From positions 1 through 43,318 of the forward strand of contig CAUYTY010000166.1 in assembly GCA_963575655.1 (NCBI GenBank): a DNA stretch of 43,318 nucleotides, written 5' to 3'. Below, one piece after another: positions 1,316 to 35,744 of the stretch (position 1 is the first letter of the stretch; each line of letters starts with the position of its first letter). Below the pieces are notes generated by a model. It was not told the DNA's origin. It saw only the letters and a program-made list of their open reading frames with translations, and searched no databases. Both the position numbers and the translations under genes were made by a program. This DNA is from Gammaproteobacteria bacterium (GTDB taxonomy: Bacteria; Pseudomonadota; Gammaproteobacteria; CAIRSR01).

Positions 1316-1336
1316 GATGGGGTGATGGCGGATCAC

Positions 1337-1459
1337 TTACATCGTTCCCACGCTCCGCGTCACTGCCATTAAGTTAAGGGAATCTCTCCTAAAACAAATA
1401 GTTACATCGTTCCCACGCTCCGCGTGGGAATGCATCCCGCGACGCTCCTGCGTCGCGTA
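1337..1459 (+). repeat. 123-bp direct repeat, copy 1 (truncated REP + linker + full REP)
   Basis: The repeat consists of a truncated REP (1337-1360), the linker beginning CACTGCCATTAAGTTAAGG, and a complete two-hairpin REP (1402-1459). The REP hairpins are TTCCCACG/CGTGGGAA and CGCGACGC-TCCT-GCGTCGCG. The same 123 bp recur at 1884-2006 without a difference that I can see. Confidence 0.85.
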
Positions 1460-1489
1460 GCCCCTGTTGGCGCTACCAGGATTCAGTCC

Positions 1490-1883
1490 ATGGGTAGAAG
1501 TCGTTACATCATTACCGAGCCAGCCCAACCACATTTTCTCACTTGCACGGTACTGGAGTGGTTGCCCATATTCACTCGCCCGGATGCCGTTCAAATCCTG
1601 TTCGACACCTGGGACTATCAGCGACGAAATAATGGATTACGCCTATATGGCTACGTGGTGTTGGAAAATCATTTACACTTCGTCGCTCAAGCGCCATGTC
1701 TGGATCACTGTGTGGCCTCGTTTAAATCCTGGACCGCGACACGGCTTATCGAGCTATTGCGGCAACATCAAGTAGAGAGAATTTTGGCACGTTTGAGTTT
1801 CGCCAAGCGGGCGCATAAGACAGATCGGCAATATCAATTTTGGCAAGAGGGATCGCACACGGAAATGATCTTGAGCGAGGAAA
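1490..1883 (+). pseudogene. 3'-truncated copy of REP-associated tyrosine transposase (RAYT)
   Basis: This fragment begins with the same ATG as the intact copy at 2359 and matches it to the sequence encoding MILSEE. There it is cut off by the second 123-bp repeat, so the frame runs into repeat sequence. The duplicated block is 1395-1883 against 2264-2752. I see two base differences, near 1821 and 1858, so the duplication is recent. The HxH motif (ENHLHF) is present, but the catalytic Tyr region (YIHLNPVKRG) is lost. The product should be inactive as a nuclease. Confidence 0.85.
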
Positions 1884-2006
1884 TTACATCGTTCCCACGC
1901 TCCGCGTCACTGCCATTAAGTTAAGGGAATCTCTCCTAAAACAAATAGTTACATCGTTCCCACGCTCCGCGTGGGAATGCATCCCGCGACGCTCCTGCGT
2001 CGCGTA
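1884..2006 (+). repeat. 123-bp direct repeat, copy 2
   Basis: This copy is identical to 1337-1459. Its left edge is the breakpoint that truncates the upstream RAYT copy, which suggests that copies recombined or that a REP unit inserted into the gene. The full REP lies at 1949-2006. Confidence 0.85.
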
Positions 2007-2096
2007 TTGGTGGGGATCACGAACAAGCCGGAAGTCATCGCGCTATATGACCGTATGGAACGCAATCACCACAATGGATGTACCGTGTTTCGAGAC

Positions 2097-2153
2097 ACGC
2101 GACGTGGGAGCGTCGCGGGATGCGTTCCCACGTGGAGCGTGGGAACGATGTAA
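2097..2153 (-). repeat. REP palindrome, inverted diverged copy
   Basis: This is a variant of the REP in inverted orientation (GCGACGTGGGAGCGTCGC then TTCCCACGTGGAGCGTGGGAA). With the forward REP at 1949-2006 it brackets about 90 bp of unrecognised sequence (2007-2096), which could be a short gene fragment. Open frames here that begin MGMHPATLLRR are only REP sequence read as protein. Confidence 0.7.
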
Positions 2154-2192
2154 GTCGGGCCACCAGTGTAAAGCTGTGAGGATGAGGTTTAG

Positions 2193-2235
2193 ACACGCCA
2201 ACGGCGTGTCGGTATATCAGCCCAGGGCAACGCCC
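2193..2235. repeat. Second palindromic repeat family (GACACGCC/GGCGTGTC and GGGC/GCCC hairpins)
   Basis: GACACGCC-AAC-GGCGTGTC (2193-2211) is followed by GGGC-AAC-GCCC (2225-2235). It is cut off at the right by the CACTGCCATTAAGTTAAGG linker seen beside the other REPs. It appears to be a different short interspersed palindrome, truncated by the later REP insertions. Confidence 0.6.
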
Positions 2236-2270
2236 TCACTGCCATTAAGTTAAGGAGATCTATCAAATAG

Positions 2271-2328
2271 TTACATCGTTCCCACGCTCCGCGTGGGAAT
2301 GCATCCCGCGACGCTCCTGCGTCGCGTA
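2271..2328 (+). repeat. REP palindrome, left flank of intact RAYT
   Basis: Two consecutive hairpins (TTCCCACG/CGTGGGAA; CGCGACGC/GCGTCGCG) are joined by TGCATCC. This is the same unit as 1402-1459 and 1949-2006. Confidence 0.85.
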
Positions 2329-2358
2329 GCCCCTGTTGGCGCTACCAGGATTCAGTCC

Positions 2359-2892
2359 ATGGGTAGAAGTCGTTACATCATTACCGAGCCAGCCCAACCA
2401 CATTTTCTCACTTGCACGGTACTGGAGTGGTTGCCCATATTCACTCGCCCGGATGCCGTTCAAATCCTGTTCGACACCTGGGACTATCAGCGACGAAATA
2501 ATGGATTACGCCTATATGGCTACGTGGTGTTGGAAAATCATTTACACTTCGTCGCTCAAGCGCCATGTCTGGATCACTGTGTGGCCTCGTTTAAATCCTG
2601 GACCGCGACACGGCTTATCGAGCTATTGCGGCAACATCAAGTAGAGAGAATTTTGGCACGTTTGAGTTTCGCCAAGCGGGCGCATAAGACGGATCGGCAA
2701 TATCAATTTTGGCAAGAGGGATCGCACGCGGAAATGATCTTGAGCGAGGAAATGATGCGAGAGAAATTGGAATATATCCATCTTAACCCAGTTAAACGTG
2801 GTTACGTGGATTGCCCGGAACATTGGCGTTATTCCAGTGCGAGGAACTACCGGGGAGAGATAGGATTGGTGGAAATTGACCGATGGTTTTGA
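2359..2892 (+). CDS. REP-associated tyrosine transposase (RAYT, Y1 family), intact
   Basis: The product has 177 residues, a usual length for RAYTs. It contains the HxH metal-binding motif in ENHLHFVAQ (about residues 61-69) and the catalytic Tyr in EYIHLNPVKRGYV near residue 140, followed by the WRYSSA motif. RAYTs are single-strand endonucleases that bind and nick REP hairpins. They can mobilise REPs or be maintained as a host-resident function. The ATG at 2359 is chosen because similarity to the family starts there. The frame is open further back to a GTG at 2293 inside the left REP, so a 22-residue REP-encoded extension is formally possible. A near-identical truncated copy lies at 1490-1883. 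Confidence 0.88.
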   Translation: MGRSRYIITEPAQPHFLTCTVLEWLPIFTRPDAVQILFDTWDYQRRNNGLRLYGYVVLENHLHFVAQAPCLDHCVASFKSWTATRLIELLRQHQVERILARLSFAKRAHKTDRQYQFWQEGSHAEMILSEEMMREKLEYIHLNPVKRGYVDCPEHWRYSSARNYRGEIGLVEIDRWF

Positions 2893-2900
2893 GTCTACGA

Positions 2901-2955
2901 TACGCGACGCAGGAGCGTCGCGGGATGCATTCCCACGCGGAGCGTGGGAACGATG
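2901..2955 (-). repeat. REP palindrome, right flank of RAYT (inverted)
   Basis: This is the exact reverse complement of most of the left REP (2271-2328). It starts 9 nt after the RAYT stop and could also act as its transcription terminator. Confidence 0.85.
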
Positions 2956-2964
2956 AATCAGTGG

Positions 2965-3231
2965 GAGCGTTGGGGATGCGGCGTCGAATTGAAATTCCCG
3001 ATCTGTAAATTGATCGATTATCAGAAACGGTGGGCGGAATTGGAGATGAGTTCCAACACTTTCGCTCTAGTGGTCATGGCGCAGTTGAAAGTGTTACGAA
3101 TCCTGTTCGCGGATCAGATTGACGAAATTTTTGGCACTCATTCTCGTCAACCTGTTCCGAATTTCTTGTGGGTATCCGATAATGAGGGCAACGGGTCACC
3201 TCATAATTTCGACGAAGAGCTGGGTGCGTGA
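2965..3231 (+). pseudogene. Remnant of an Rpn/DUF4351-like (PD-(D/E)XK transposase-like) gene
   Basis: The peptide KFPICKLIDYQKRWAELEMS, followed by NTFALVVMAQLK, matches from memory the conserved middle of the Rpn/YhgA-like family (typical form VVKLLDYRxRWxELExSxNPFAVVVMAHLK). The N-terminal nuclease region is absent. After VMAQLK the sequence (VLRILFADQIDEIFG onward) no longer resembles the family. The REP unit at 2901-2955 lies directly upstream, so I infer a gene truncated by REP/RAYT insertion and then frameshifted. The family assignment is tentative. From 3232 to 3307 I see nothing. Confidence 0.45.
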
Positions 3232-3307: not shown

Positions 3308-3973
3308 CTAGTTTAGATAAAAGAACTCCACCTGGAATCCTGCAATCTCGATGAGATCGCGATTTTCCAGGAGATGATTGTCATCGGTGAGAGGCAGGTC
3401 GTTGACCAATACCGCCTCCTTGCATTCCGTAGCGGTGACGACATAACCATCGGAGGTTCTAGTAATAACCGCGCTGGCTTTTCCGGGGCGACCCAGCCGG
3501 GTTCGGAGATGTTCTAGCGGCAATTCGGTACCACGGCGCGATCCGTTAAGGACTCGGATAGAGGCGGGTGGTAGGTGTCCCGTGGAGGCCAAGGAGAGCC
3601 CGGAGATGGAGGCATCTCCTGCTGAGACTCGTACCGAGGTGTCTCCCATGGAAGGGATAGAGGGATCGCCCGAAGCAGGGGGGGGAGTCGAGATGCTGTA
3701 GAGAAGTTCGTGCTTACCAATCCGTACCACGTCGCCCGGGCAAAGCAGGTGGTGTTGAATGGGGGCTTCATTGACGAAGGTACCGTTGGTGCTTCCTAGA
3801 TCCTCAAGGATATACCCTTCGTCAGTGCGGTATATTTGGGCATGGTAGCCACTCACCGCCAGATTATCGATATGGAGGTCGTTGTTCGGGCGTCGCCCAA
3901 TCGTTAGACGCTCGCGGTCTAACGGATAGATTCCGACGGTACGTCCAACAAAGGTCAGGGTAAGCTGAATCAT
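3308..3973 (-). CDS. FHA domain protein with a second degenerate FHA-like domain
   Basis: Residues about 5-90 form a forkhead-associated domain, a phosphothreonine-peptide binder, with LTIGRRPNNDLHI, SGYHAQI and LEDLGSTNGTFVN. A Pro/Ser/Gly-rich linker (about 95-135) leads to a second domain with FHA-like spacing (TRLGRPGKAS, VLVNDLPL, LLENRDLIEIAGFQVEFF). The second domain lacks the Gly-Arg/Ser-His binding set, so it is probably non-binding. The gene is the third of a tight operon: it starts 19 nt after the PP2C stop, with an AGAGGTAGG ribosome site. Its natural partners are the Ser/Thr kinase and phosphatase upstream. It probably reads out the kinase's phosphorylation state. Confidence 0.88.
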   Translation of the reverse strand: MIQLTLTFVGRTVGIYPLDRERLTIGRRPNNDLHIDNLAVSGYHAQIYRTDEGYILEDLGSTNGTFVNEAPIQHHLLCPGDVVRIGKHELLYSISTPPPASGDPSIPSMGDTSVRVSAGDASISGLSLASTGHLPPASIRVLNGSRRGTELPLEHLRTRLGRPGKASAVITRTSDGYVVTATECKEAVLVNDLPLTDDNHLLENRDLIEIAGFQVEFFYLN

Positions 3974-4815: not shown

Positions 4816-7530
4816 CTACGCCTCCGTACCCCCGCGAGCTAACGTCTCGGCGCAACTGGCGATGTCTTGGGCTAGATCGGTACCGTTCTGATAACGCTTG
4901 GAGGCATCCTTTTCGAGTACCTTGTTGATAATGGTTGAGAGGCATGGGGCCAAATCGGTGCGTAATTCTCGGATGTCGCGGTGGGCCACGTTAGCGATGC
5001 GATACATCAACGTAGCCATGGAATCTGCCGTAAAGGGAAGCTCTCCCGTGAGGAGCTGGTAGAACATCACGCCCAAGGAGAACAGGTCAGAACGACCATC
5101 TACCTTCTGGCCAGAAAGTTGCTCAGGAGACATATACGAGGGTGTGCCCATCACCATACCCGTCTTGGTCTTGCTGGAATCTGTAATCCGGGCGATACCA
5201 AAATCAGTGACCTTGATTGTCCCAGTATCGGGTTCGTACATGATGTTGGCTGGCTTGATGTCACGATGAACCACACTCTGGGCGTGAGCGTAGGCCAGGG
5301 CCTCAGCCACCCGACGCACGAGGTCGAGCACTGTGGCTACGGGCAGTAGTCGGTCTTGGGTGGTATAGCCGGCGAGGTCCTTACCCTTGAGTAGTTCCAT
5401 GGCGATGTAAGCCAGGTCATGCTCCTCTCCTGCGTCGTAGATGGTCACAATGCAGGGATGAGACAACCGTCCCGCCGTCTCCGCCTCGCGGAAGAAGCGT
5501 TGTTTGACCTCAATGAGTTCATTTCCGTCGAACTCCTGGGATAGCGCGATTGTCTTGATCGCCACCACGCGGTTGATCTTCGGGTCACGACCGAGATACA
5601 CCGCACCCATCGCACCACGCCCCAATTCCCGCTCGACCTGATAACGACCTAGCATCGGTTTTTGGGTGCCTTCCTCGGACATTACCAAGGTTCCACCCGG
5701 AGAAGTGGCACGTGCTCCGCCCAGGACCATCGTCTCTTCTAGGTTACGATTGCGACGCAGACGGTCCTGAATATCCCGAAATTTTGGTTCGTAATCAGCC
5801 ATATAAGAGAATACGCTGCCGGCCTTTGCGTACTGACGCTTACGTTCGAAGTCCAGGGCTAGGTTGTAGAGCAGTTCCAGGAGTGCGTTGTCCATCGGAC
5901 TCCGGCGGAACTTCTCGAAGGCCATGTCGAGTTGTCCCTGATTCTGGAAGGCCAGCCCCAGCATTCGGTTACTCTCCGAGGCTGCGGAGTCTGCCGCTTC
6001 CTTGCCCTTCTCGGTGACTAGGTAGCGCTTGGTGGTGAGTAACAGATGCCCGGTGATTAGTAATACCACCGGCACCATAAGGTGCAACCACAAGGCCGGA
6101 CCGGTCATCAGTACGAAATGAGCAACCACCAATCCGATCAACAACAGCGCCGTGGCGATTGCCGCAGTGCCGGCCTTGAGGTGGGGCAAACCAAGGGTCA
6201 GGTACAGCACCAACACCAGCGTGATCAACCACTCTACCCAGTTTGCCCACTCGGGGGTCTTGTAGAAGTGGCTCTGTAGGATCGAAGAGACCTCATGGGC
6301 CAGGATCTGCGCTGACGAGGTCGCCGGTGAGGCTGGGGTGGGATAAGCATCACCTACCCCCTTGGCGGTGGTGCCAATAATGACAATCTTGCCTGCGTAC
6401 TTGGTGGGGGAGATTTTGTTGTTGTAGACATCGAAAAAGGAGTCCACCGGAAAGGCTCCACGCCCATCCTTGTCAGGATAAAAGTGTGGATACATTCGTA
6501 GGTAGGAGTCAGTAGGTAGGTTAAGCCGACCGAGTTGTACCCCTTCCCCCAAACGTAGGCGCATATCTTCGGGTTTGAGATTGAGGTACTTGGCGGCCAG
6601 TACCAATGAAATAGATGGGTAATACTCTCCAAAATAGTCCAAAACGATTGGTTCACTCCGCACAGCTCCATCAACGTCACGGTATACGGTGAGATGGCCG
6701 ATAGCGGTGGCCGCGCCCCCGAATTCTGCAAGAGGCGCTAGGAACTGGACTGCGGACAGCGGCATCAACCCGTTATTGGCTGCATCTACCTCATCGCTCA
6801 CCTTGGTGAGGGCATTGCGCCGCAGGTAGTCGGGTAGAATCCGGTCGGGGCGCCCTTCAGGACGACCGAGGTCAAAACCTATCCCCAACACCACATTGCC
6901 TGCTCGGCGAATGGCCTGCGCCAGATAGCGGTCGAGGTCGAGGCGTCCCTCGGTTTGCGTCAGCAACTCGCGTAGGTGCGTGGCGTCTTCGGGTGCGCGC
7001 ACGAGATAACTGGAGGCGGTTAGGAACGTGGCAAGCTGAGTAAGTACCTGATGCTCCCGTTCCTCTGGGGTGCGGGGCTTAGGTGCGGGGTGCCCGGCGA
7101 GACTCGCCGTGGCTTGATCCAGAAGGTTTTTGAGGGTTACCGCCTCGGCGTGTAGACCGGGCAGGCTAGAGTTGTCGTAGCGTTTGTTCAGTTCATCGCG
7201 GATAGCGACCAATCCTCGATCTACCTGGGGCTCGGTGTAGAACACCGTGTTGCCGATTACTTTTGTACCACCTTTGGAAAGGATATCGAGCAACTTTGCC
7301 TGAACATCTCGGGGCCAAGGCCAGCGGCCCAGATTTGCGATGCTTTGGTCGTCAATGGCGATGATCGCCACCTTGTCACTGGGTACGCGGTCGTTGGCCT
7401 GTACGCCGAGGTCGTAGGCCTTACGCTCTAAGCCCTGCAAAAGGTCTGAATTAGTAGTGACAATCACCAACAAACTGACTGCTATGCCGACAAACCAGTC
7501 CTTCTTCCAAAATGCGGTTTTCAAAGGCAT
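4816..7530 (-). CDS. CHASE2 sensor Ser/Thr protein kinase (Hanks type)
   Basis: The 904 residues run as follows. There is an N-terminal membrane segment (about 12-32). An extracytoplasmic CHASE2 sensor domain follows (about 38-410), with AIIAIDDQSIANLGRWPWPR and GKIVIIGTTAKG. Three membrane helices follow (about 425-505), then a helical TPR-like stretch (about 530-600), then a kinase domain (about 630-890). The kinase has the glycine loop LGRGAMGAVYLG, Lys in VVAIKTIA, HRDIKPANI, DFGIAR and GTPSYMSPEQ, so it should be active. It senses an unknown external signal and phosphorylates Ser/Thr targets. It is first in an operon with the PP2C and FHA genes and diverges from a CHASE2 cyclase. Positions 6717-6767 are identical to 8143-8193 of that cyclase on the other strand. 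In the kinase this peptide (LMPLSAVQFLAPLAEFG) sits in a normal CHASE2 position, so the kinase is the likely source. Confidence 0.93.
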   Translation of the reverse strand: MPLKTAFWKKDWFVGIAVSLLVIVTTNSDLLQGLERKAYDLGVQANDRVPSDKVAIIAIDDQSIANLGRWPWPRDVQAKLLDILSKGGTKVIGNTVFYTEPQVDRGLVAIRDELNKRYDNSSLPGLHAEAVTLKNLLDQATASLAGHPAPKPRTPEEREHQVLTQLATFLTASSYLVRAPEDATHLRELLTQTEGRLDLDRYLAQAIRRAGNVVLGIGFDLGRPEGRPDRILPDYLRRNALTKVSDEVDAANNGLMPLSAVQFLAPLAEFGGAATAIGHLTVYRDVDGAVRSEPIVLDYFGEYYPSISLVLAAKYLNLKPEDMRLRLGEGVQLGRLNLPTDSYLRMYPHFYPDKDGRGAFPVDSFFDVYNNKISPTKYAGKIVIIGTTAKGVGDAYPTPASPATSSAQILAHEVSSILQSHFYKTPEWANWVEWLITLVLVLYLTLGLPHLKAGTAAIATALLLIGLVVAHFVLMTGPALWLHLMVPVVLLITGHLLLTTKRYLVTEKGKEAADSAASESNRMLGLAFQNQGQLDMAFEKFRRSPMDNALLELLYNLALDFERKRQYAKAGSVFSYMADYEPKFRDIQDRLRRNRNLEETMVLGGARATSPGGTLVMSEEGTQKPMLGRYQVERELGRGAMGAVYLGRDPKINRVVAIKTIALSQEFDGNELIEVKQRFFREAETAGRLSHPCIVTIYDAGEEHDLAYIAMELLKGKDLAGYTTQDRLLPVATVLDLVRRVAEALAYAHAQSVVHRDIKPANIMYEPDTGTIKVTDFGIARITDSSKTKTGMVMGTPSYMSPEQLSGQKVDGRSDLFSLGVMFYQLLTGELPFTADSMATLMYRIANVAHRDIRELRTDLAPCLSTIINKVLEKDASKRYQNGTDLAQDIASCAETLARGGTEA
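6717..6767 (-). repeat. 51-nt sequence shared with the divergent cyclase gene (probable donor copy)
   Basis: Read on the minus strand, this stretch is identical to 8143-8193 on the plus strand. The match ends abruptly on both sides. It encodes MPLSAVQFLAPLAEFG in frame in the kinase. Confidence 0.9.
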
Positions 7531-7736: not shown

Positions 7737-10038
7737 ATGGTCGCCTCTTCGCAACTTACTCCTACCCAACCTTCTTCACCATCGAAGCTCCCCTCTCGAA
7801 GCGTGCTGGATCTACGCCGTCACGTTCTGCACTATGCCTTGTCTGGGATAGTGTTGGTGCTGTTTCTGCTCCATGCCCTCCACCAGATCCCCATCCCCTT
7901 CCTGGATCGCTTGGAGTTCATCAGCTACGACGCTCGACTCCGCCTGACTATGCCCGGAGGGGTCGATCCACGGATGGTGATCGTAGACATCGACGAGAAA
8001 AGCTTGGCCGAGGAGGGGCAATGGCCTTGGCCTCGGGACCGCGTGGCCACCCTCCTGGACCGTTTGTTTGATCAGTACCATGTTGGTGTGGTGGGTTTCG
8101 ACGTTGTCTTCGCAGAATCTGATCACAACTCGGGATTGAATGTGATGCCGCTGTCCGCAGTCCAGTTCCTAGCGCCTCTTGCAGAATTCGGGGAAACTCA
8201 AGGACGATCGCAGTTTTCAGGCCATGTTGCCGGACCTTCAAACCCAGCTCGACTACGACCAGCGTTTTGCTACTGCCCTGCATGGGCGGCGCGTTGTGCT
8301 TGGTTATTACTTTGGAGACCAGGCACGCACCGTTGGGAAACTTCCTCCGCCGGTATTGGACGCGGCAGCCCTTGGTGGCCATCACATCAACTCGGTGATG
8401 GCTGTCGGGTATGGCGCCAATCTCCCGGTACTCCAGAAAGAAGCCGCCAGCGCTGGTCACTTTACCCCCAGCGCGGATGTCGACGGCATCATTCGGCGCG
8501 TACCACTGCTCGTCGAATACGAAGGAAATTATTACGAATCACTGGGTTTGGCGATGATCCGGGTAGCCTTGGATCAGGGAAAAGGCAAACCTGCGGTTGT
8601 CCCAGAATTTACCAAAGCGGGTTTAGAGTGGTTAAAGGTTGGTAATTTGCAGCTCCCAGTGGATGACCTTGCCCAGGCCCTGATCCCTTACCGGGGTAAG
8701 CGCGGGAGTTTCCCCTACATTTCCGCCAGCGATGTTCTGCACGGTCGGATTGCACCGGAGGTATTGACGCGAACAATAGTTCTGGTAGGTACCACGGCGC
8801 CAGGTTTAATGGATTTAAGGGCCACTCCGGTGGGTGAAATCTATCCTGGGGTTGAGGTTCACGCCAATCTGGTGGCAGGTATCTTTGACCATGTCATCAA
8901 GGAACGCCCCAGTTATACCCTTGCCGCCGACATCATCCAAACTATATTCATCGGGGGGATAGCGGTGATTTTACTACCGCTACTCAATCCCTTGCTTGCC
9001 AGTATTGCCACGACCATCCTAATCATGGCAACGCTGGCCTGGAACTTTGCGGCCTGGCAATGGGGAAACCTAGTATTGCCGCTCGCCCCGGTATTACTGC
9101 TGATCATAATTGTCTATGCCATAGATATGACGCTCGGCTACCTCTTGGAATCTCGAGGTAAAAAGCAGATTACTCATTTATTCGGGCAATATGTCCCCCC
9201 CGAATTGGTCGATGAGATGTCGCGCTACCCGAGTCGTTTCTCTATGGAGGGTACTAGCCGCGAGATGACGGTATTATTTTCGGATGTACGAAACTTTACC
9301 AGTATCTCTGAGGGGCTGGACCCTCCGAGTCTTAGCAAACTTATGAATGCCTACCTCACCCCTATGACGCAGATTATCCACGAAGAACGGGGCACTATTG
9401 ATAAATACATCGGTGACGCGATTATGGCATTCTGGGGGGCACCGCTGGATGACCCCGACCATGCCCTCCACGCCGTACAAGCGGCACTCGCTCTACAGCG
9501 TCGTGCCGTAGAGATCACTGAGGAATTTCGCGCACGGGGTTGGCCAGAAATTCGGATTGGGGTGGGGATTAATACCGGTGTAATGCGGGTCGGTAACATG
9601 GGATCCGAATTTCGTACGGCCTATACGGTGATGGGTGATGCTGTAAATCTCGCCTCACGCCTTGAAGGACTTACTAAGCAATACAAAGTTACCCTCATCG
9701 TCAGTGAACATACCTACCGCTCCCTGCCTCACATGACCTTCCGTGAACTCGATAAGGTCCGCGTCAAAGGTAAACAGGAACCGGTGGTCATCTACGAACC
9801 CCTGGGTAATACCAACGAACTGGATTCGGCGTTGCTCGAGGAACTCAAGAGCTATCGTCAGGCCCTGAATTACTACCGTGCCCAGGATTGGGAGCGGGCC
9901 GCCGTGGCCTTTTACCGCCTACGTGAGAAATCTCCTCAGACCTATCTCTACAGTATGTACATGGAGCGATTAGAATTCTTCCGGGCCAATCCTCCCGGTA
10001 AGGAGTGGGATGGGGTCTTCTCCTTTACCACCAAATGA
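7737..10038 (+). pseudogene. CHASE2 class III adenylate/guanylate cyclase, frameshifted
   Basis: Two overlapping frames together make one gene. 7737 to about 8193 encodes an N-terminal membrane segment (IVLVLFLLHAL) and the start of CHASE2 (MVIVDIDEKSLAEEGQWPWP, VVGFDVVFAESDHNSG). From about 8194 the +1 frame continues with SFQAMLPDLQTQLDYDQRFA, three membrane helices (about 8920-9150) and a cyclase domain. The cyclase domain has both metal-binding Asp regions (LFSDVRNFT, DKYIGDAIMAFWGAP) and YTVMGDAVNLASRLE. The Lys and Asp in these motifs fit adenylate cyclase better than guanylate cyclase. The frame changes at a 51-nt patch (8143-8193) identical to the neighbouring kinase gene. Unless this is an assembly error or is bypassed by ribosomal frameshifting, the full protein is not made. 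A TTG at 8179 could start a C-terminal product that retains the cyclase domain. Confidence 0.85.
8143..8193 (+). repeat. 51-nt ectopic patch causing the cyclase frameshift
   Basis: This stretch is identical to the reverse complement of 6717-6767. In the cyclase it lies just after FAESDHNSGLN, where family members continue with the segment leading into DRSFQAMLPDLQ. It is therefore not at the homologous CHASE2 position. The left junction keeps the frame and the right junction shifts it by one. Confidence 0.85.
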
Positions 10039-14804: not shown

Positions 14805-15042
14805 ATTATCAGGAAATGGGATGATTTTAGCTTAAGATAGAATAGTGTATAATTTTCAATCGATTATAGCAAGAATCAAAATAGACCAGTGCCCTCCCCT
14901 GCGAGCAGCTGGATTAGTGGCCGCTAAGTATACCCTCTAACTTCCTGTGGTCATCAAATTTGGCGAACGTATTGACTAATAATAGATTATTTTTACTTGC
15001 TTGTCCCCTAACCAACGCGCAGGTTAGTAGACCAGTGCCCTG
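14805..15042. other. Non-coding debris with a 14-bp direct repeat
   Basis: I see no gene in this stretch. TAGACCAGTGCCCT occurs at 14882-14895 and again at 15028-15041, the second copy directly at the broken end of the IS630 fragment. This may mark a deletion or insertion junction. Confidence 0.5.
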
Positions 15043-15389
15043 TTCTCTTCATTTGCTTTTGGGTGTGATAGTGTTTTTTTCTTATAGCTGATTCTCATGC
15101 GTTTTAATGCTTGACCAATGCCGCTCCTACTCACCCCTAAACGTTTAGCTCGCTCGAATTGATAGGCGTCAGGGTGCATTTCAACATCACGCGCCAGCGA
15201 TTCCCTATTAATTTTCGTGGCGGGTTTGTCTCGAGTTAGTTTTGGCTCCAGGCGTGAACGCCAACGCGTCAAAGTGGCAATCCCAATTCCAAAGCGGCTT
15301 GCGATTTCTGCGTAGGTGAGCTGTTCTTGTTCTTGTATGGCGAGCACTTTGCGACGGAAATCAATTGAATATGTCATGGGTTTAATCAC
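15024..15389 (-). pseudogene. IS630-family transposase, N-terminal fragment
   Basis: The first 117 residues (MTYSIDFRRKVLAIQEQEQ; HTH region YAEIASRFGIGIATLTRWR) match the second copy at 16256-16825 except for one substitution (DVEM against DAEM, one base). After about 15043 homology is lost and the frame ends in unrelated sequence. The DDE catalytic region is missing. The intact terminal repeat lies at 15391-15407, followed by TA and then piece 2 of the AAA-ATPase gene. Confidence 0.88.
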
Positions 15390-15407
15390 TTTATAATGGC
15401 TTTGCTA
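15043..15407 (-). mobile_element. IS630-family element, one-ended fragment
   Basis: This holds the transposase 5' half and one terminal repeat (TTATAATGGCTTTGCTA). It is nearly identical to the corresponding part of the complete element at 15991-16843. The other end is deleted at about 15043. Confidence 0.85.
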
Positions 15408-15990
15408 TAGTTTACAATCCCACCTTGGCGCTTTATTTCCTCAAATATTTCGGGCGTCACTGTCGTTATCCCGAAAGAATGTTGGACGAGAATCTGGCCA
15501 TGGATCGTAATCGCATTCAATATGTGGTCGCTTTGCCCCATGGTCGAACCTTGGTAACCCAGGCGCTCGCCGTTAGTGAAACTAATTCCGGACAGACTAT
15601 CACCATCGATCAATTGGCCGATCGTTTTGGTGTAGAAGCGATGCTGGAGGCCCCTCGTGATCATACTTTTCTCGCGTCGCTGCTCTATTACTTTGGAGTG
15701 TTGACCCAGGCGGGACGTGATGAATGGGGACGGCTCTGTCTGACTATTCCGAATTTGGTGGTGCGTAAGCTCTACGCCGAACGCCTCCAGGAGGTGCTCC
15801 TCCCTGATTACGAGGATCAAAAGCGACGCCAAGAGGCGGCCTTTCGTTTCTGTGCCAAGGGTGATCTCGTGCCCCTGTGTGATTTCATCGAGCAGCGTTA
15901 CTTCAAGGTCTTCGATAATCGTGACCTGCGTTGGTCCAATGAATTGGTGGTCAAGACGGCATTTCTCATCCTGCTCTTCAACGATACCTA
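15408..15990 (+). pseudogene. AAA-ATPase/PD-(D/E)XK protein, middle fragment (piece 2 of 3)
   Basis: VYNPTLALYFLKYFGRH begins the piece, and DENLAMDRNRIQYVVALPHG, LASLLYYFGVLTQAG and LVVRKLYAERLQEVLLPDYE follow in family order. It ends at FNDTY. The frame enters from IS630 sequence at the left (TA at 15408-15409) and leaves into IS630 at 15991. Joining 15990 to 16846 (one TA kept) restores FNDTYYIVDSETAIERGYAD, the normal family sequence. Confidence 0.88.
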
Positions 15991-16843
15991 TAGCAAAGCC
16001 ACCATAAAATGATTACGCATAATTTGCGAAGACTTCCTCGGTAGTACGGCGTTCTCTTTTGTCAATCGCCTTTAATTGCGCCCACTTATGTTCGATGGGA
16101 TTGAAATCTGGTGAATAAGGTGGTAAATATTCCAGAATATGGCCCGCATTTTTGATGGATTTTTGAATTGGAAAGTTGCGTTATCCATCACAAGAACGCA
16201 ATTGGGAGGAAGTTTTGGGAGTAAATCTTGGGTGATCCAAGAGTAAAACACATTACTATTGATGGTTCCGGTAAAGAGCGTTACACATACCAATCAACGC
16301 TCCAATGGCGTTCACTCGCCCTTTAGCATTCCAATCTTGCTTGCCAACGCAACGCTTGCCAATCGGCGCGTAGCCATTGCGGCGTGGCATATCCACCGCG
16401 AATCCAGCCTCATCGACAAAAACTATGCTTCTCCCTTCTGCTTCATATACTTCCATTCGCTCTTGAAAGGCTGTTCTCTTCTCTTCATTTGCTTTTGGGT
16501 GTGATAGTGTTTTTTTCTTATAGCTGATTCTCATGCGTTTTAATGCTTGACCAATGCCGCTCCTACTCACCCCTAAACGTTTAGCTCGCTCGAATTGATA
16601 GGCGTCAGGGTGCATTTCAGCATCACGCGCCAGCGATTCCCTATTAATTTTCGTGGCGGGTTTGTCTCGAGTTAGTTTTGGCTCCAGGCGTGAACGCCAA
16701 CGCGTCAAAGTGGCAATCCCAATTCCAAAGCGGCTTGCGATTTCTGCGTAGGTGAGCTGTTCTTGTTCTTGTATGGCGAGCACTTTGCGACGGAAATCAA
16801 TTGAATATGTCATGGGTTTAATCACTTTATAATGGCTTTGCTA
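15991..16843 (-). mobile_element. IS630-family insertion sequence with TA target duplication
   Basis: The ends are TAGCAAAGCCACCATAAAA (15991) and TTTATAATGGCTTTGCTA (to 16843), imperfect inverted repeats. They are flanked by TA at 15989-15990 and 16844-16845, the target duplication typical of the IS630/Tc1 group. Excision with one TA exactly restores the interrupted host reading frame. Confidence 0.92.
16013..16825 (-). pseudogene. IS630-family transposase, frameshifted
   Basis: The first 180 residues are intact (HTH N-terminus; catalytic-domain start IVFVDEAGFAVD and KGRVNAIGALIG). The frame then shifts near 16280 to VTLFTGTINSNVFYSWITQD and LPPNCVLVMDNATF. It shifts again near 16165 to SIKNAGHILEYLPPYSPDFN and PIEHKWAQLKAI, ending FANYA with a stop at 16013-16015. 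All three DDE-type catalytic regions are recognisable. Two frameshifts mean that no complete protein is made without recoding, so I regard it as decayed. The start could be GTG 16825 or ATG 16813. Confidence 0.88.
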
Positions 16844-16845
16844 TA

Positions 16846-17173
16846 TTACATCGTAGATTCGGAAACCGCCATTGAGCGTGGTTATGCCGATCTTACTCTC
16901 ATTCTTCGACCGGATATTCGCCGTTATCGTCTACTCGATCATGTACTGGAATTCAAACATCTGCGTTGGGAGGAGCTAGGAATGAAAGGCGAGGAGGGAC
17001 GTGGATTGGCCCGAGAGGTTTTACGAGGATTGCCACCGGTAGCCGCGCGCTTGGCCGAGGCTGAAAGGCAATTGGCCCGTTATCGCCAAGCCCTGGAACG
17101 GGCCTATGGTGAACGACTCAAACTGAGAACCCACGCAGTGGTGTGTATTGAGTTGGAGCGCCTGGTGTGGTAA
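16846..17173 (+). pseudogene. AAA-ATPase/PD-(D/E)XK protein, C-terminal fragment (piece 3 of 3)
   Basis: YYIVDSETAIERGYADLTLI begins the PD-(D/E)XK nuclease-like end of the family. LLDHVLEFKHL carries the ExK motif, and YGERLKLRTHAVVCIELERL closes the protein. An open frame runs in from the IS630 terminal repeat (ATG at 16832), so a short nuclease-like peptide could be translated. It cannot be the intact enzyme. From 17174 to 17375 I see no gene. Confidence 0.88.
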
Positions 17174-34262: not shown

Positions 34263-34582
34263 GGTCGCGTCTACTATTCGTAGAGGGGATCCTCATTCTC
34301 GGTTATCAGGCACGGAAAAACGAGTTATATGATTCACCGATAAGTTTTCATGTGTGTTGGGTAACTGAACCATGCCAACACCAAGCTAAATAGTGGCACC
34401 TAGAAAGCTAAGTTAAACAGCGGGAATAGAAAAATTTAATACCAAATTCTCGACTAAAGCGCTTGGAGAATCGGCCGAAAATAGGATAAAAAGAGCCACA
34501 GGATGATGTAGTCGATTGTGGTAGAAAATACCATATTTTAGGCAGAGATAACTTTGTGACCAAGTAATCGTTTAAATTGCTC
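34263..34582. other. Non-coding stretch between transposase remnants
   Basis: I see no gene, RNA or clear repeat here. It is AT-richer than the flanks and probably holds the 5' end of the DDE element. Confidence 0.4.
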
Positions 34583-34616
34583 GGTAGTGCTCCAATCTAT
34601 AGGATCTCATGAGAAG

Positions 34617-35051
34617 CTATCCATTTTGATTGACAGGAAGCGTGGCATTATAGTGATGGATAAAGTACCAAATTGCTCCAATATGATTGACTAATTTTTT
34701 GAAAATGACAATGATTTTCTCACTAATCTCGAAATTCGTTGACGGAGGGTGCAATTGAATCTTTCAATATGGTTGGTTTGACCGCTTTCCTTGCCAACCG
34801 CGTAATAGCGTTTCGAGGGAAAAATTGCCGCATAGGCGGCCCAGAAATCCGTATAACTCACCGCGCATTGACGATAGACGGGGGGCAAGGAATCCCATAA
34901 GGCGCGTGCGGACTGCTCGCTACGATCGCCAATACAAACTCCAACAATTTTTCGAGTATCCCGATCGATGGCAAGCTAAACCCATTGTTTGTTTTCCTTT
35001 TTTCCAACAAATGGATCAGAGTTCATCGCACTTCATGGTGAGTTTTCCATT
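34617..35051 (-). pseudogene. insB: IS1 InsB-like transposase, broken by stops and frameshifts
   Basis: Expected IS1 motifs are recognisable: LTMKCDEL, QWV, IDRDTRKIVGVCIGDRSEQ, YTDFWAAYAAIFP and TNHIERFNCTLRQRISRLVR. Damage includes a stop or shift just after CDEL, TAG in place of the second Trp codon of WVW, and a one-base loss in an A run at about 34695 that separates SFSK from LVNHIGAIWYFIHHYNATLP. The original stop is at 34617-34619. It is inactive. Confidence 0.85.
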
Positions 35052-35336
35052 TTATTTTTCATCGATTTCCAGGGTACGCGGAGTTTGCGCGTATTTTTCA
35101 TTGATATATTTTTGAAGCCAAGTCTCGGAAACGCCTACTACTCTCGTAATCCCCGCCAGGGAAATTCGCTCCAACAAAAGATGATCAATATAATTATTTT
35201 TCTCATCAGAAATGGATCCCTTTTCTGGGATTAACACAAATTGCCGACCACATTCATTACAGCGATACATCTGTTTGCCAGTTGCATTAAAACCATTTTT
35301 TACAACCATTTCAGATTTGCAATTTGGGCAGCACAT
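35052..35336 (-). CDS. insA: IS1 InsA-like zinc-ribbon HTH protein
   Basis: The 94 residues start MCCPNCKSEMVVKNG and have a four-Cys zinc ribbon (CPNC, CNEC) and an HTH (LLERISLAGITRVVGVSETW). This is the InsA N-terminal regulator/DNA-binding part of IS1. It ends at DEK, where InsAB frameshifting would normally join InsB. Its partner insB is broken, so the element is not autonomous. Confidence 0.85.
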   Translation of the reverse strand: MCCPNCKSEMVVKNGFNATGKQMYRCNECGRQFVLIPEKGSISDEKNNYIDHLLLERISLAGITRVVGVSETWLQKYINEKYAQTPRTLEIDEK

Positions 35337-35744
35337 AGAAAGCTCCTAATTTTGCATGAAAATACCGGAATGGAATGTTAACTCATCCTATAGATTGGGG
35401 CACTACCGCTAGACCTTTTGGTGGATATCCGGTTGCTGTCGTTTAGAGATAGAGATCCGCTTGATTTATTATCGTGGTCCTGTTCATTTGCGGGGCGAGA
35501 ATATCGTCCTAACCATTTGGGATTAGAGAATGAGCACACGGTGATCCTGGTTTTACTTATAACTATTATTTTGAATAAGGGTAGTCGTTGCGTGCACTGC
35601 TCAGTCTGTAACCTTTGGGGCCTCCAACTAGCTTCAAAACCGCGTCCTACCGTAGATGTGGCTGTTGAAGCGCAACGTTACTAGACAGATAGCGGCCTGA
35701 CTGTTGTAGGGATATTCCTAGTAACAGAAGTGAGTTACCACCTC

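What the first reader, a model, noticed from the sequence alone, without database searches (positions are those of the whole stretch)
8143..8193. 51-nt ectopic patch copied from a divergent CHASE2 kinase gene into a CHASE2 cyclase, causing a frameshift
Positions 8143-8193 are identical, on the opposite strand, to 6717-6767 in the adjacent kinase gene. Similarity stops abruptly at both ends. In the kinase the encoded peptide sits at a normal CHASE2 position; in the cyclase it interrupts a different part of the domain and shifts the frame. This looks like templated insertion or template switching between two nearby inverted sequences, a rarely seen route to gene damage. It could also be an assembly join at a k-mer-sized repeat, since the length is 51.
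Basis: partly seen in the sequence, partly recalled or inferred. Interest (0 to 1): 0.7.

Follow-up and report, generated by a model that had tools for sequence, protein, structure and literature searches.

The report
Copied DNA patch breaks signalling gene
A 51-base piece of one bacterial signalling gene was copied, in reverse orientation, into its neighbour, replacing about 20 bases and knocking that gene out of frame; this looks like a known but rarely caught kind of copying accident, not a new system.

Summary
Positions 8143-8193 equal the reverse complement of 6717-6767 over exactly 51 nt, and flanks show no similarity. Orthologous cyclases in the three nearest genomes lack the patch, are intact, and have 28 nt less here. 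59 of 61 scored relatives keep the same 32-residue spacing and none carries the peptide. In the kinase the segment lies at its ancestral site. So the kinase is the donor and the cyclase the recipient. About 18-23 nt were replaced by 46-51 nt (net +28), with 2-3 nt of possible junction microhomology. The gene is split in mid-CHASE2 but carries no other damage, so the event is recent. A join at a 51-mer is unlikely: contig ends show k=55, so reads should span each junction. Best explanation: a local double template switch, inverted, 1.4 kb apart. Rivals are capture of a short DNA fragment (SPDIR) and an in vitro amplification chimera, which I could not exclude without reads. The cyclase is probably a fresh pseudogene. 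Known kind of mutation, a clean natural example; moderate interest.

The parts
8143..8193 (+). ectopic patch in the cyclase gene, identical to kinase DNA; TG (8143-8144) and GGG (8191-8193) are shared with the native Val and Gly codons
6717..6767 (-). donor segment in the CHASE2 Ser/Thr kinase gene (encodes LMPLSAVQFLAPLAEFG)
   Evidence: same place and related peptide in kinases of G002 and G003
4816..7530 (-). intact CHASE2 - protein kinase gene, 904 aa, divergent from the cyclase
7737..8144 (+). 5' part of the CHASE2 adenylate/guanylate cyclase gene, in frame up to the Val codon 8142-8144 (CHASE2 profile positions 6-83)
8191..10038 (+). 3' part of the cyclase gene in the +1 frame from the Gly codon 8191-8193 (CHASE2 profile positions 84-253 and cyclase catalytic domain)
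8194..8645 (+). out-of-frame tail read if translation continues from the 5' part, ending at a stop at 8643-8645

Best explanation
A recent local templated replacement. While the cyclase was being copied, the growing 3' end left its template near Val 8142-8144. It paired through about 2 nt with the oppositely oriented kinase sequence 1.4 kb away, copied 46-51 nt, then returned to the cyclase at a GG(G) microhomology about 18-23 nt further on. Net change +28 nt, hence a frameshift and very probably loss of the full-length cyclase. Shown: donor, recipient, exact endpoints, net length, absence in relatives. Inferred: that it happened in the cell, at a replication fork or during gap repair. If the + strand is the leading strand here (weak GC-skew support), the donor lies about one Okazaki fragment behind the fork on the exposed lagging template, which would explain the inverted orientation and short distance.
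For: Exact inverted copy, the only two copies in the assembly. No flank homology and a target about 70 codons away from the paralogous position, so not homologous gene conversion. Three nearest orthologues intact and 28 nt shorter at this spot; 59/61 relatives with fixed spacing. The native Val and Gly codons survive at both edges, expected with microhomology and about 1 in 64 for a blunt random replacement (my estimate). Donor within 1.4 kb: about 0.07% if the donor were drawn at random from 4.2 Mb. Downstream part shows no excess amino-acid change (23 own-specific vs 26 in G001): recent. k=55 means each junction needed read support. GC skew mostly positive over the window.
Against: No reads, no second isolate. 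A second isolated local inverted copy sits at a contig end in this assembly (55 nt, 2.8 kb apart, C33 start), and two inverted contig-end copies occur in the sister assembly G001. That could mean chimeras made in vitro rather than in the cell. The microhomology is short, and the ancestral bases are inferred from relatives whose proteins differ by about 25-34%.
Confidence: 0.55

Rival explanations
1. Short-patch double illegitimate recombination (SPDIR): a short single-stranded fragment of the kinase gene annealed by microhomologies to exposed template in the cyclase and was built into a daughter strand.
For: Same product: short intragenomic patch, replacement of a few bases, microhomology at both ends. 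The process is known to me from memory (Harms et al. 2016, PNAS, listed in the references read; text not held).
Against: A free fragment need not come from 1.4 kb away; locality and inversion favour a switch within one fork or repair intermediate.
Confidence: 0.2
2. In vitro chimera from whole-genome amplification (MDA) or library preparation: the strand switch took place in the tube.
For: MDA chimeras are mostly inverted (85%), usually <10 kb apart, with 2-21 nt of complementarity (PMC1855051). This and the sister assembly each have contig ends that are inverted copies of nearby sequence.
Against: The MDA chimeras described join two segments; here two switches 51 nt apart return to the original locus. 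The chimeric version would have to dominate coverage to be assembled. Only 1 of 157 sampled contig ends in this assembly is an isolated local inverted copy, and no other internal pair like it, apart from insertion-sequence debris, was seen in about 0.9 Mb. Whether the DNA was amplified is unknown.
Confidence: 0.17
3. Assembly artefact: join or gap fill at a k-mer-sized repeat.
For: The 51-nt length resembles a k-mer size.
Against: k is most likely 55 (50 of 157 contig ends match elsewhere over exactly 55 nt, one at 57, next at 69). A repeat shorter than k is traversed unambiguously. A mis-join would swap flanks, not leave cyclase on both sides. No N in the window.
Confidence: 0.06
4. The altered gene is still functional: translation of the C-terminal part alone (Met 8224 or TTG 8179) or +1 frameshifting gives an active cyclase.
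For: The 3' ORF of 619 aa stays open with an intact catalytic domain.
Against: No obvious ribosome-binding site close to either start (by eye); the upstream frame runs on to 8645, so no re-initiation is expected; no stop codon at a slippery site as in known +1 frameshifts; the product would lack the N-terminal membrane segment and part of CHASE2. The open frame is expected simply because the event is recent.
Confidence: 0.05

Closest known systems
Short-range template-switch mutations, 'four-point' model (PMC7954356)
   Same: Two switches, short inverted copy of nearby sequence, original sequence resumed on the other side, small stretch replaced
   Different: Catalogued there as local events within a fork in ape genomes; here donor and target are 1.4 kb apart, in two bacterial genes
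Quasipalindrome template-switch mutations of E. coli (PMC7202029)
   Same: Inverted copying, strand switch and return, can shift frame
   Different: Those perfect an existing imperfect inverted repeat; here no inverted repeat existed before, and the spacer is 1375 nt
SPDIR in Acinetobacter baylyi (Harms et al. 2016; from memory, title confirmed)
   Same: Short intragenomic ectopic patch replacing native bases with microhomology at both ends
   Different: Donor here is local and inverted; not observed in an experiment
MDA chimeras (PMC1855051)
   Same: Inverted, local, few-base complementarity
   Different: Two-segment products made in vitro; here two junctions 51 nt apart return to the same gene

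Membership tests
Switch-and-return (four-point) template-switch mutation | Inverted copy of a nearby segment placed between unchanged flanks | tested here: met
Switch-and-return (four-point) template-switch mutation | Ancestral state without the copy in relatives | tested here: met
Switch-and-return (four-point) template-switch mutation | Arises during replication within one fork | not testable with these tools
   no experimental system; only locality and orientation fit
SPDIR | Short ectopic patch replacing native bases | tested here: met
   about 18-23 nt replaced by 46-51 nt
SPDIR | Microhomology at both junctions | tested here: inconclusive
   TG and GG(G) fit native codons, but ancestral bases are inferred from relatives
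SPDIR | Donor is a free single-stranded fragment | not testable with these tools
   needs experiment
Quasipalindrome template switch | Pre-existing imperfect inverted repeat at the site | tested here: not met
   flank identity 15-17%; relatives show no related sequence at the site
Homologous (paralogue) gene conversion | Flanking homology and corresponding positions in the two genes | tested here: not met
   no flank similarity; kinase segment aligns about 70 codons downstream of the patch in the cyclase
k-mer assembly join | Repeat length equals assembler k | tested here: not met
   inferred k=55, repeat 51
MDA chimera | DNA was whole-genome amplified before sequencing | not testable with these tools
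   origin of the assembly is not disclosed; no reads
CHASE2 - class III cyclase | CHASE2 plus Guanylate_cyc domains, with the profile interrupted only at the patch | tested here: met
   CHASE2 6-83 and 84-253, Guanylate_cyc 7-176

The most novel reading that the evidence does not exclude
This lineage has a recurrent in vivo process that copies short inverted patches of unique coding DNA from 1-3 kb away. The kinase-to-cyclase patch and the 55-nt inverted copy at the start of contig C33 would be two products of it, and longer ones would be hidden because they break contigs at k=55.
Probability: 0.12. Interest if true: 0.65.

Novelty: new member of a known kind. Interest (0 to 1): 0.36.

Why it matters
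Short templated patches are easily misread as clusters of unrelated point mutations and indels, and in bacteria they are known mainly from reporter strains and selection experiments. A natural event with donor, target and both breakpoints readable to the base shows how a gene can be broken by copying its neighbour, and gives a search recipe (isolated local inverted exact matches inside genes) for measuring how often this happens in wild genomes.

Tried and rejected
Homologous conversion between the two CHASE2 domains: rejected. In-frame peptide insertion shared by relatives: rejected. k-mer join: first suspected because many contig ends overlapped by 51-55 nt (output flooded by masked contigs), then rejected when the peak proved to be 55. 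Other local inverted pairs as further events: one cluster is IS1/IS30-like transposase debris (named by eye), others look like insertion-sequence ends, REP-like repeats or tandem paralogues. Long-decayed pseudogene: rejected, no excess of changes. Full text of the SPDIR paper not held, and paper searches found no open text describing it.

Full report
WHAT IS THERE. The window holds two divergent CHASE2 genes: a protein kinase (4816-7530, minus strand, 904 aa, CHASE2 plus Pkinase) and a cyclase (from 7737, plus strand, CHASE2 plus Guanylate_cyc). Positions 8143-8193 are the exact reverse complement of 6717-6767. It is the only exact pair of this kind in the window outside repeat families, and these are the only two copies found in the 4.2-Mb assembly. 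The 60-nt flanks are 15-17% identical, no better than random sequence, and a 51-nt match is expected by chance about 4e-22 times in the window.

WHICH WAY IT WENT. The cyclase is broken: the 5' ORF (7737-8645) and the 3' ORF (8179-10038) are in different frames. CHASE2 profile positions 6-83 lie in the first and 84-253 in the second, so the domain is complete except that it is cut at the patch. The orthologues in the three nearest genomes (75, 70 and 66% identical over the 3' part) are intact open frames of 754, 802 and 833 codons between stops. At the patch they read Val - six residues - Gly. The window has 46 nt between the same Val (GTG) and Gly (GGG) codons where they have 18, a net +28 nt, which shifts the frame. 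Among 61 related loci where the motif could be scored, 59 have the same 32-residue spacing and 2 have 29; none carries the peptide. In the kinase, by contrast, the peptide MPLSAVQFLAPLAEFG has recognisable counterparts at the same place in the kinases of G002 and G003 (TPLTAVRIMAPLPALG, MPLTATRVLAPLSDFG). So the kinase is the donor. The corresponding position in the cyclase, by alignment of the two CHASE2 domains, is about 70 codons downstream of the patch, so this is not conversion between homologous positions.

ENDPOINTS. If the native Val and Gly codons were retained, the patch shares TG on the left and GG or GGG on the right with the ancestral sequence, the usual few bases of microhomology at illegitimate junctions. 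That both edges happen to encode the conserved residues has a probability of roughly 1/64 for a blunt random replacement (my estimate: T for the Val codon, GG for the Gly codon). The ancestral bases are inferred, so I call the microhomology likely, not shown.

AGE. Own-branch amino-acid changes in the downstream cyclase part are 23, against 26 on the G001 branch; upstream 5 against 8; kinase 25 against 44. No sign of long relaxed selection, no other stop or frameshift, and a 51/51 match: the event is recent, or not biological.

IS IT AN ARTEFACT? I read about 1.02 Mb of the same assembly and asked how far each of 157 contig ends matches another place exactly. The distribution peaks at 55 (50 ends) with a shoulder at 50-54 and almost nothing above (smaller sample). 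That is the signature of a final k of 55, also seen in G001. A 51-nt repeat is shorter than k and is traversed unambiguously, so the junctions should have been present in reads. A wrong join at a repeat would also exchange the flanks, which did not happen. Amplification chimeras are a better artefact candidate. In MDA, 85% of chimeras are inverted, most are less than 10 kb apart, and most prime on 2 or more complementary bases (PMC1855051). Two points cut against it: the sequence returns to the original locus after 51 nt, needing two independent switches, and the product must dominate the local coverage. One fact cuts for it: contig C33 begins with a 55-nt inverted copy of coding sequence 2.8 kb away, and two G001 contig ends have inverted copies 257 and 482 nt inside. 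These contig-end cases may equally be real rearrangements, but they show that local inverted copies are not unique to this site. In 0.98 Mb from related loci of other species, no isolated inverted pair longer than 30 nt was found, though these loci include fewer contig ends.

MECHANISM. The product fits a double template switch: leave the cyclase template, copy the oppositely oriented kinase for about 50 nt, return a little further on (the 'four-point' description, PMC7954356). If the patch was made during synthesis of the plus strand of the cyclase, the template read was the plus strand at 6717-6767. If the plus strand is the leading nascent strand here (GC skew is mostly positive; weak evidence, since most genes also lie on that strand), the parental plus strand about 1.4 kb behind the fork is lagging-strand template, single-stranded over roughly an Okazaki fragment (1-2 kb in E. 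coli; general knowledge). This would account for both inversion and distance. SPDIR, described in Acinetobacter baylyi (known from memory; title seen, text not available), makes the same kind of product from free fragments, but a random intragenomic donor would fall within 1.4 kb only about 0.07% of the time. Quasipalindrome switching (PMC7202029) is excluded as such because no imperfect inverted repeat existed at the site.

CONSEQUENCE. Full-length cyclase cannot be made without a +1 shift. I see no stop-codon slippery site, no ribosome-binding site just upstream of Met 8224 or TTG 8179 (read by eye), and the first frame runs on to 8645. Loss of this cyclase is the likely outcome; the nearest other CHASE2-type cyclase in the genome is only 31% identical, so there is no close spare copy.

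VERDICT. A known kind of mutation, well resolved; moderate interest.

Noticed in passing
L189 (own genome, contig C33) 1-55 and 2803-2857: Contig start is a 55-nt inverted exact copy of coding sequence (737-codon open frame) 2.8 kb inside, followed by what look like transposase remnants; either a second local inverted copy or a chimeric end.
   Followed up: partly
L145 (G001 C130) 3037-3086 and 3519-3568; L235 (G001 C23), last 55 bases: Two contig ends of the sister genome are inverted copies of sequence 482 and 257 nt inside the same contig.
   Followed up: partly
L104 (own genome, C184 20001-40000) 5589-8277: Nested and partly inverted debris of insertion sequences (IS1-like and IS30-like transposase pieces, judged by eye) with 111- to 303-nt exact repeats.
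   Followed up: partly
window 34550-35400: Degenerate insertion-sequence remnant on the minus strand (IS1-like transposase pieces, judged by eye), bounded by related repeats containing CCAATCTATAGGAT.
   Followed up: no
window 1335-2955: Cluster of direct and inverted repeats (427-nt exact direct repeat, several copies of a 55-57-nt inverted unit).
   Followed up: no
window 15040-15410 and 16476-16846: Direct repeat of about 370 nt, 99% identical, 1436 nt apart.
   Followed up: no
L213 (own genome, C61), 3' end: Contig ends in a run of about 25 C followed by 14 G, which looks like a poly-G sequencing artefact kept at a contig end.
   Followed up: no
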